Assembly: GCA_963575645.1 (NCBI GenBank)
Contig: OY754464.1
Span: 79,644,948 to 79,708,947, forward strand
From: Xanthostigma xanthostigma
Lineage: Eukaryota; Arthropoda; Insecta; Raphidioptera; Raphidiidae
Length of the DNA: 64,000 nt
Direction: 5' to 3'
In this document: positions 35,253-37,405 of the stretch, piece after piece
Position numbering within the stretch: the first letter of the stretch is position 1
Layout: each line of letters begins with the position of its first letter
Translations under genes and position numbers: made by a program
The notes under the pieces: generated by a model
The model's database searches: none
Seen by the model: the letters and a program-made list of their open reading frames with translations, nothing else
Told to the model about the DNA's origin: nothing

Positions 35253-35332
35253 TAATGTTATAAAGGGAGAGTGCGAATTTTGTGTTTGCGTAATCTCCGA
35301 AACTACTCAACCGATTGAAAAAAATCACCAAT

Positions 35333-35566
35333 TGTGAAAAACAACTCTAATAATTTAGAGTGATGATGATCCTGTTTAAATATTAAAGATTAAAGGATGA
35401 AACCTGGTGGCATAGGATCAATGAACTTTGCAAATAGACAGCATTGATTCCCTGAAGATGGCATAAAGATTGCCGAAACGTCAGACAATGAAATGCAATA
35501 AAAAAAACTTCAATATTTGCAAAGTTCATTGATCCTATTCCACCAGGTTTCATCCTTTAATCTTCT
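35333..35566. mobile_element. 234-bp retrozyme-like foldback with hammerhead in the loop
   Basis: Flanked by exact 13-bp direct repeats AAAAATCACCAAT (35320-35332 and 35567-35579). Inverted arms 35379-35433 and 35514-35564 pair almost completely ('ggatgaaacctggtgg', 'aggatcaatgaactttgc'). The loop contains a complete hammerhead core. The length, the absence of protein, and a type I hammerhead resemble the small Penelope-related retrozymes described in animals; that name is an inference. Confidence 0.8.
35441..35496 (+). ncRNA. Hammerhead ribozyme (type I, minimal)
   Basis: Stem I distal GCATT (35441-35445) pairs with AATGC (35492-35496); core CTGAAGA (35452-35458); stem II GGCA/TGCC (35460-35463, 35471-35474); GAAA (35475-35478); stem III AC/GT; cleavage triplet GTC (35480-35482). 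All conserved core residues are present. The two-base stem III suggests dimer cleavage, as in Penelope-type motifs. The pair next to the core in stem I is imperfect. Confidence 0.8.
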
Positions 35567-35727
35567 AAAAATCACCAATATTTAGAATAGACCTTCAAGA
35601 TGGACATAGGCTATATATTATCGCGTTAAAATAAAATCGCTTTTTGTGGACACCAAGTAAATCGACAAAAAAAAAAAAAAAACACTGGCAATCTAAAAAT
35701 TCGTGCGAAGCCGTACCGGGCCACTAG

Positions 35728-37332: not shown

Positions 37333-37405
37333 TGGTCTGTAGCTCAGTTGGTTAGAGCGTCGTGCTAATAACGCGAAGGGCGCGGGTTCGATCCTCCCAT
37401 GATCC
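37333..37405 (+). tRNA. tRNA-Ile(AAT)-like sequence, probably pseudogene
   Basis: D arm TAGCTCAGTTGGTTAGAGC, anticodon arm CGTGCTAATAACGCG (anticodon AAT), and T arm GCGGGTTCGATCCTCCC closely follow tRNA-Ile. The acceptor stem has two or three mismatches (GGTCTGT against ATGATCC), so it is likely a recent pseudogene or SINE head. No CCA is coded. It is followed by a T-run about 10 bases later (37414-37421). Confidence 0.65.

What the first reader, a model, noticed from the sequence alone, without database searches (positions are those of the whole stretch)
35333..35566. Small foldback element with an intact hammerhead ribozyme in its loop
A 234-bp sequence bounded by exact 13-bp duplications, with about 50-bp inverted arms and a complete hammerhead core (CTGAAGA, GGCA/TGCC stem II, GAAAC, GTC) between them, inserted in a Helitron. 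Hammerheads of this minimal type are known from Penelope-like elements and animal retrozymes. A hairpin-armed 234-bp form is unusual and may be a distinct, possibly circular-RNA-producing family.
Basis: partly seen in the sequence, partly recalled or inferred. Interest (0 to 1): 0.85.

Follow-up and report, generated by a model that had tools for sequence, protein, structure and literature searches.

The report
Fold-back copy of Penelope-type retroelement
The 234-bp hairpin is one shortened copy of a common, non-coding retrotransposon of the Penelope kind whose copies are often inserted as two back-to-back halves; its ribozyme motif is inherited from that element and weakened in most copies examined, so it is not a new circular-RNA family, but its many copies suggest how the two halves are made.

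Summary
In detail: a 234-bp insert with 51-nt arms, an exact 13-bp duplication and a hammerhead-like core. The reading changes. The host genome holds hundreds of matches to a parent of about 340 nt with cis features of Penelope-like elements (PLEs): a minimal hammerhead lacking stem III over an ATG, a 50-nt 'tail' between two alternative 3' ends, a GT-AG intron kept or removed, target duplications mostly of 9-19 bp, and head-to-head inverted copies. It has no ORF, and no autonomous partner was found. 234 bp is not a unit: 48 fold-backs have 42 different centres. The intact CTGAAGA core is the exception (14 exact matches; 624 with CCNAAGA).

New here: of 40 copies not chosen by tail or fold, 25 are fold-backs; 23 have exactly one tailed and one untailed end, none two or zero (two are unclear); four more fetched later agree. 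Either arm can be the longer, and the arms agree in splice state (21 of 21). This argues against cDNA snap-back and suits both target strands priming on one RNA, one at each start site. Circular RNA is unsupported: of neighbouring cores listed, all but one pair are head-to-head.

The parts
35320..35332 (.). left copy of the 13-bp target-site duplication
   Evidence: exact match to 35567-35579
35333..35436 (-). antisense arm with the tail: parent positions q338 to q234; roughly 35333-35382 is the tail (q338-q289)
   Evidence: blastn to the 338-nt arm of L045, 90%
35432..35566 (+). sense arm without tail: parent positions from q149 to about q286; the match runs to 35568 (q288) into the duplication
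   Evidence: blastn to the arm of L045, 88%
35432..35436 (.). fold-back junction; the two arm matches overlap by 5 bases, longest exact run 3
35446..35447 (+). exon-exon junction (GCATTG/ATTC): an intron sits here in unspliced copies
   Evidence: L095 and L098 carry GTAAGT...TCTTCTAG at this point
35452..35482 (+). hammerhead core CTGAAGA-U-GGCA...TGCC-GAAAC-GTC; predicted cut after 35482
   Evidence: family comparison
35458..35466 (+). ATG GCA TAA: relic start codon with a stop after two codons
   Evidence: sequence
35386..35564 (.). 51-nt inverted arms 35386-35436 and 35514-35564 around a 77-nt loop
35567..35579 (.). right copy of the target-site duplication

Best explanation
The insert is a 5'-truncated, head-to-head (fold-back) copy of a short non-coding retroelement that carries the cis signals of Penelope-like elements and was presumably moved in trans by a PLE protein (reverse transcriptase plus GIY-YIG nuclease). 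Shown here: the parent structure, two 3' ends (with and without tail), target duplications, spliced and unspliced copies, one tail per fold-back in nearly every case examined, and arms alike in splice state. Inferred: the PLE enzyme cuts both strands of AT-rich DNA with a stagger; both target 3' ends prime reverse transcription on the same RNA, one at the tail end and the other about 50 nt further in; each cDNA runs toward the RNA 5' end and may stop early; the two cDNA ends are then joined, which makes a hairpin with a variable centre. The hammerhead lies over the relic start codon; in this family it is a weakened passenger or a slow, assisted cleaver, and is not what makes the hairpin.
For: Parent, tail and two 3' ends. 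Target duplications: 51 of 70 copies score 9 or more against 36 of 1381 shuffled flank pairs; printed lengths 9-19 bp in 56 of 62, median 12. Intron; 223 exact intron-boundary matches and 612 exact spliced-junction matches. One tail: 23 of 25 fold-backs in the sample not chosen by tail or fold, 30 of 30 in the query-biased set A, 4 of 4 in L103-L106; single-armed copies use both ends, 8 tailed and 6 untailed of 15. No two of 100 listed exact tails lie within 1.5 kb (100 listed of 1215). Either arm longer: 8 shorter, 7 longer, 8 equal among the 23. Splice state: 18 of 18 pairs agree, 0 of 200,000 shuffles do so; 3 more agree and 1 is uninformative. Subfamily marks agree in 36 of 39 and 43 of 45 pairs. 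PLE proteins with RVT_1 and GIY-YIG in the same genome. Published PLEs: inverted pLTR, tail on one of them, short duplications (PMC3846280); two RT start sites bounding the tail, extension of both strands, hammerhead over the start codon (PMC11167929).
Against: No autonomous element sharing the arm was found in the 30 GIY-YIG loci read, so movement by a PLE is inferred from cis features. [quoted passage not shown] Agreement of arms could also mean two RNAs of one source locus, or later conversion between arms. Subfamily agreement is informative only in set A; in sets B and C (13 of 14, 15 of 16) it equals the permuted value because the sample is uniform. Rare variants are hardly shared: 5, fraction 0.038, permuted mean 0.012, maximum 0.082. 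L050 and L059 do not fit the one-tail rule cleanly. For 8 of 70 copies no duplication was found. Junction overlaps were not tested against chance.
Confidence: 0.65

Rival explanations
1. Same PLE-type element, but the arms are copied from two RNAs of one source locus held in a dimeric RNP whose two halves use different start sites.
For: Arms agree in splice state and subfamily, which cis preference for one source would also give; the PLE protein is predicted to be a dimer (PMC11167929).
Against: Needs a separate reason for exactly one tail per fold-back. Source loci were not identified.
Confidence: 0.2
2. [quoted passage not shown]
For: Head-to-head order throughout the sample and inverted junctions; the published proposal.
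Against: The untailed arm reaches further than the tailed arm in 8 of 23 and the reverse in 7: a snap-back copy cannot outrun its template or add a tail. Spliced copies show that sense RNA was a template at some stage. Antisense self-priming does not explain why one end lacks the tail.
Confidence: 0.07
3. A retrozyme-like non-autonomous element that spreads as a circular RNA cut by the hammerhead.
For: Hammerhead core in the window copy; retrozymes of 170-400 nt with duplications are known in animals (PMC7229834, abstract and passages).
Against: Family core has C at U4 (624 against 14 matches). No stem III. No tandem array among listed neighbours except one same-strand pair 51 bp apart. Copy ends are at the RT start sites, not at the cut site.
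Confidence: 0.04
4. A fold-back DNA transposon (terminal inverted repeats moved by a transposase).
For: Long inverted arms and duplications.
Against: Duplications vary in length, arms stop at many points, the ends differ by a tail, single-armed copies occur, and an intron is cleanly removed.
Confidence: 0.02

Closest known systems
Penelope-like elements with inverted pLTRs (Adineta Pen2a, PMC3846280; anole PAc, PMC11167929)
   Same: inverted pLTR, tail on one of them, short variable duplications, intron retention, minimal hammerhead over the ATG with the cut 25-26 nt after it
   Different: no ORF here, short enough that whole copies are two arms only; U4C in the ribozyme; hundreds of matches
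Animal non-LTR retrozymes (PMC7229834, passages)
   Same: short non-coding element with a type I hammerhead and duplications of retroelement type
   Different: retrozymes are tandem repeats with canonical hammerheads; this family is head-to-head, lacks stem III and has a degraded core
L1 twin priming (recalled)
   Same: both target strands prime on the RNA and an inversion results
   Different: as recalled, the inverted parts there hardly overlap; here both arms copy the same RNA stretch and start at two fixed sites
Fold-back DNA transposons (recalled)
   Same: long inverted arms
   Different: variable duplications, one-sided tail, intron loss

Membership tests
Autonomous Penelope-like element | ORF with reverse transcriptase and GIY-YIG nuclease | tested here: not met
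   ATG GCA TAA, no ORF in the 340-nt parent; hence filed only as a non-autonomous element with PLE signals
Non-autonomous element using PLE machinery | two 3' ends that bound a short tail | tested here: met
   arms end near q288 or q338
Non-autonomous element using PLE machinery | head-to-head inverted pLTR with the tail on one | tested here: met
   25 of 25 head-to-head, 23 of 25 one-tailed
Non-autonomous element using PLE machinery | minimal hammerhead without stem III over the start codon | tested here: met
   motif and ATG position; core weakened by U4C, activity not tested
Non-autonomous element using PLE machinery | short target duplications | tested here: met
   51 of 70 at score 9 or more, control 36 of 1381
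Non-autonomous element using PLE machinery | shared termini with an autonomous PLE of the same genome | tested here: inconclusive
   none of 30 loci read shares the arm; 150 of 521 GIY-YIG candidates were scored
Non-autonomous element using PLE machinery | mobilised by a PLE protein | not testable with these tools
   needs an experiment
Animal retrozyme | tandem repeat units | tested here: not met
   18 of 18 neighbouring pairs head-to-head; one same-strand pair at 51 bp in another list
Animal retrozyme | circular RNA | not testable with these tools
   no RNA data
Fold-back DNA transposon | fixed-length duplication and equal ends | tested here: not met
   variable duplications and one-sided tail

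The most novel reading that the evidence does not exclude
In Penelope-type retrotransposition both target strands prime reverse transcription on a single RNA, one at each of the two adjacent start sites that bound the tail, so that the head-to-head fold-back is the normal product and one tail per insertion is its signature.
Probability: 0.5. Interest if true: 0.75.

Novelty: new member of a known kind. Interest (0 to 1): 0.45.

Why it matters
How PLEs complete an insertion is open. In vitro work found two RT start sites and extension of both strands, with later steps 'yet to be validated' (PMC11167929, main text read); the earlier proposal was self-priming on an antisense template (PMC3846280, Discussion and passages read). 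A short family with hundreds of matches, of whose sampled copies most are fold-backs, lets these models be told apart by counting. In the papers I opened I saw no count of tails per fold-back and no splice-state comparison of arms; I searched only, and the older papers on Penelope structure and PLE hammerheads (Lyozin 2001, Cervera 2014, Lunse 2017; seen as references) were not read.

Tried and rejected
Rfam for the hammerhead: no hit. The microRNA hits are hairpin-shape matches far under their gathering scores. Autonomous partner among GIY-YIG loci: none shares the arm; weak hits are short and AT-rich. Rare-variant sharing between arms lies within the permuted range. The first alignment mixed strands because loci from the - strand are not turned; redone. 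ORFs of 150 aa or more in the window: none. My first idea that every copy has its own centre was too strong: four centres recur among 48 fold-backs; re-mobilised fold-backs are thus not excluded for those.

Sampling limits. Set A (30 loci) was found with a one-tailed fold-back as query and is biased. Set B (30 loci) are the best matches to a loop region of L029, a fold-back. Set C is 12 of the first 17 places; I left out 5 that lie in opposite-strand pairs, which under-counts fold-backs. L103-L106 were picked because they hold two cores.

Full report
What is there. The window copy is a 234-bp insertion with an exact 13-bp duplication, two inverted arms and a hammerhead-like core. Paralogues of the flanking repeat run through the site. 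A search of the host genome (623 Mb, 28 contigs) scored 40 of 1677 candidates; the best match of each is 81-100% identical.

The parent. A second search with only the loop region (99 bases, no tail; 40 scored of 1230) brought longer copies. They show one parent of about 340 nt: a 5' end at q1-3, the hammerhead over an ATG (q169-199), an A-rich stretch, a first 3' end near q288 and a second near q338; the 50 nt between are the tail. The ATG is followed by a stop after two codons, so the parent codes for nothing evident. L095 and L098 carry GTAAGT...TCTTCTAG between GCATTG and ATTC, and L092, L093 and L094 carry its 3' part. The genome has 223 exact matches to the intron boundary and 612 to the spliced junction. 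Splice state is not just subfamily: copies with CTTTGTTTC are found unspliced (L092, L094) and spliced (L099), and copies with the TTAG mark likewise.

Match to PLEs. Described PLE copies have inverted pseudo-LTRs, a tail of about 30-40 bp that is optional on one of them, duplications of 8-10 bp in the cases given, and intron retention (PMC3846280); RT start sites inside the RNA that bound the tail, extension of both target strands, and a protein-assisted hammerhead over the start codon with the cut 26 bp downstream of it (PMC11167929). Here the predicted cut is 25 nt from the A of the ATG. The genome holds PLE proteins: two tested have RVT_1 and GIY-YIG. Motifs of the form CTGAWGATG-stem-GAAAC stand in 5 of the 30 GIY-YIG loci read (L067, L068, L070, L071, L072; L070 and L072 overlap), and L082 has a variant. 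None of the 30 shares the arm.

Ribozyme. The core with CTGAAGA has 14 exact matches, with CCNAAGA 624. Of 72 arms that span the core, 2 (L001, L020) match all 12 positions checked and 56 miss only U4. L019 and L020, two of the 14, owe the CTGA to their fold-back junction (by eye). Against the family the window copy has T at position 4 but C at 2.1, losing the pair with A1.1. U4C considerably lowers activity in vitro but let a viroid stay infectious (PMC3088659, passage). The Rfam negative decides nothing.

Fold-backs. Sets B and C (42 loci less the duplicates L031 = L029 and L046 = L045) give 40 copies. 25 are fold-backs, all head-to-head; 23 have one tailed and one untailed end; L050 and L059 have one arm ending elsewhere; none has two tails or none. 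15 are single-armed: 8 tailed, 6 untailed, 1 other. At those single-arm frequencies independent choice would give about 49% one-tailed, so 23 of 23 has odds near 7 in 10^8. Four further fold-backs, L103-L106, are one-tailed too. In biased set A it is 30 of 30.

Mechanism. Among the 23 the tailed arm is shorter by more than 15 nt in 8, longer in 7, equal in 8. A snap-back copy can neither outrun its template nor gain a tail, so cDNA snap-back fails at least for the first group. In the listed places on C1 and on C2 up to 20.25 Mb (50 of 223 intron places, 100 of 612 spliced), 18 opposite-strand neighbours agree in splice state, 7 unspliced and 11 spliced (one pair 1104 bp apart); 0 of 200,000 shuffles do so. 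Of four pairs in which one or both arms missed the exact patterns, L103 is spliced in both arms, L104 and L106 unspliced in both, and L105 uninformative. Subfamily marks agree in 36 of 39 and 43 of 45 pairs of the 48 two-piece fold-backs, but only set A is informative; rare variants are hardly shared. So both arms most likely come from one RNA or one source locus, each starting at a different one of two sites. Of 48 junctions 23 overlap by 1-7 exact bases, 4 are blunt and 21 have extra bases, among them L094 whose gap is intron; no chance control was made.

Verdict. The insert is a truncated fold-back copy of a non-autonomous element with PLE signals. The hairpin follows from how such elements insert; the ribozyme is inherited and mostly weakened. 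The circular-RNA idea has no support here but could not be tested with RNA.

Noticed in passing
L057 about 1722-1996, with pieces in L038 and L059: A second repeat nested in the arm, itself inverted at its ends and holding a CTGAAGAAGATCC...GGATCGAAACGTT motif: apparently another PLE-type family with fold-back copies.
   Followed up: partly
L070 2271-2449 (both strands), overlapping L072: A PLE with a GIY-YIG frame has hammerhead-like motifs on both strands close together, an inverted arrangement like that of the short family.
   Followed up: no
L073-L090 (for example L077, L082): About 18 loci with nearly identical GIY-YIG ends, the longest open frame 804 aa, suggest a recently active PLE family in this genome.
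   Followed up: partly
C1:76483621-76483702: Two same-strand cores only 51 bp apart, the one exception to head-to-head order among listed neighbours.
   Followed up: no
window 37334-37405: A tRNA-like match, the only Rfam hit over its gathering score in the window.
   Followed up: no
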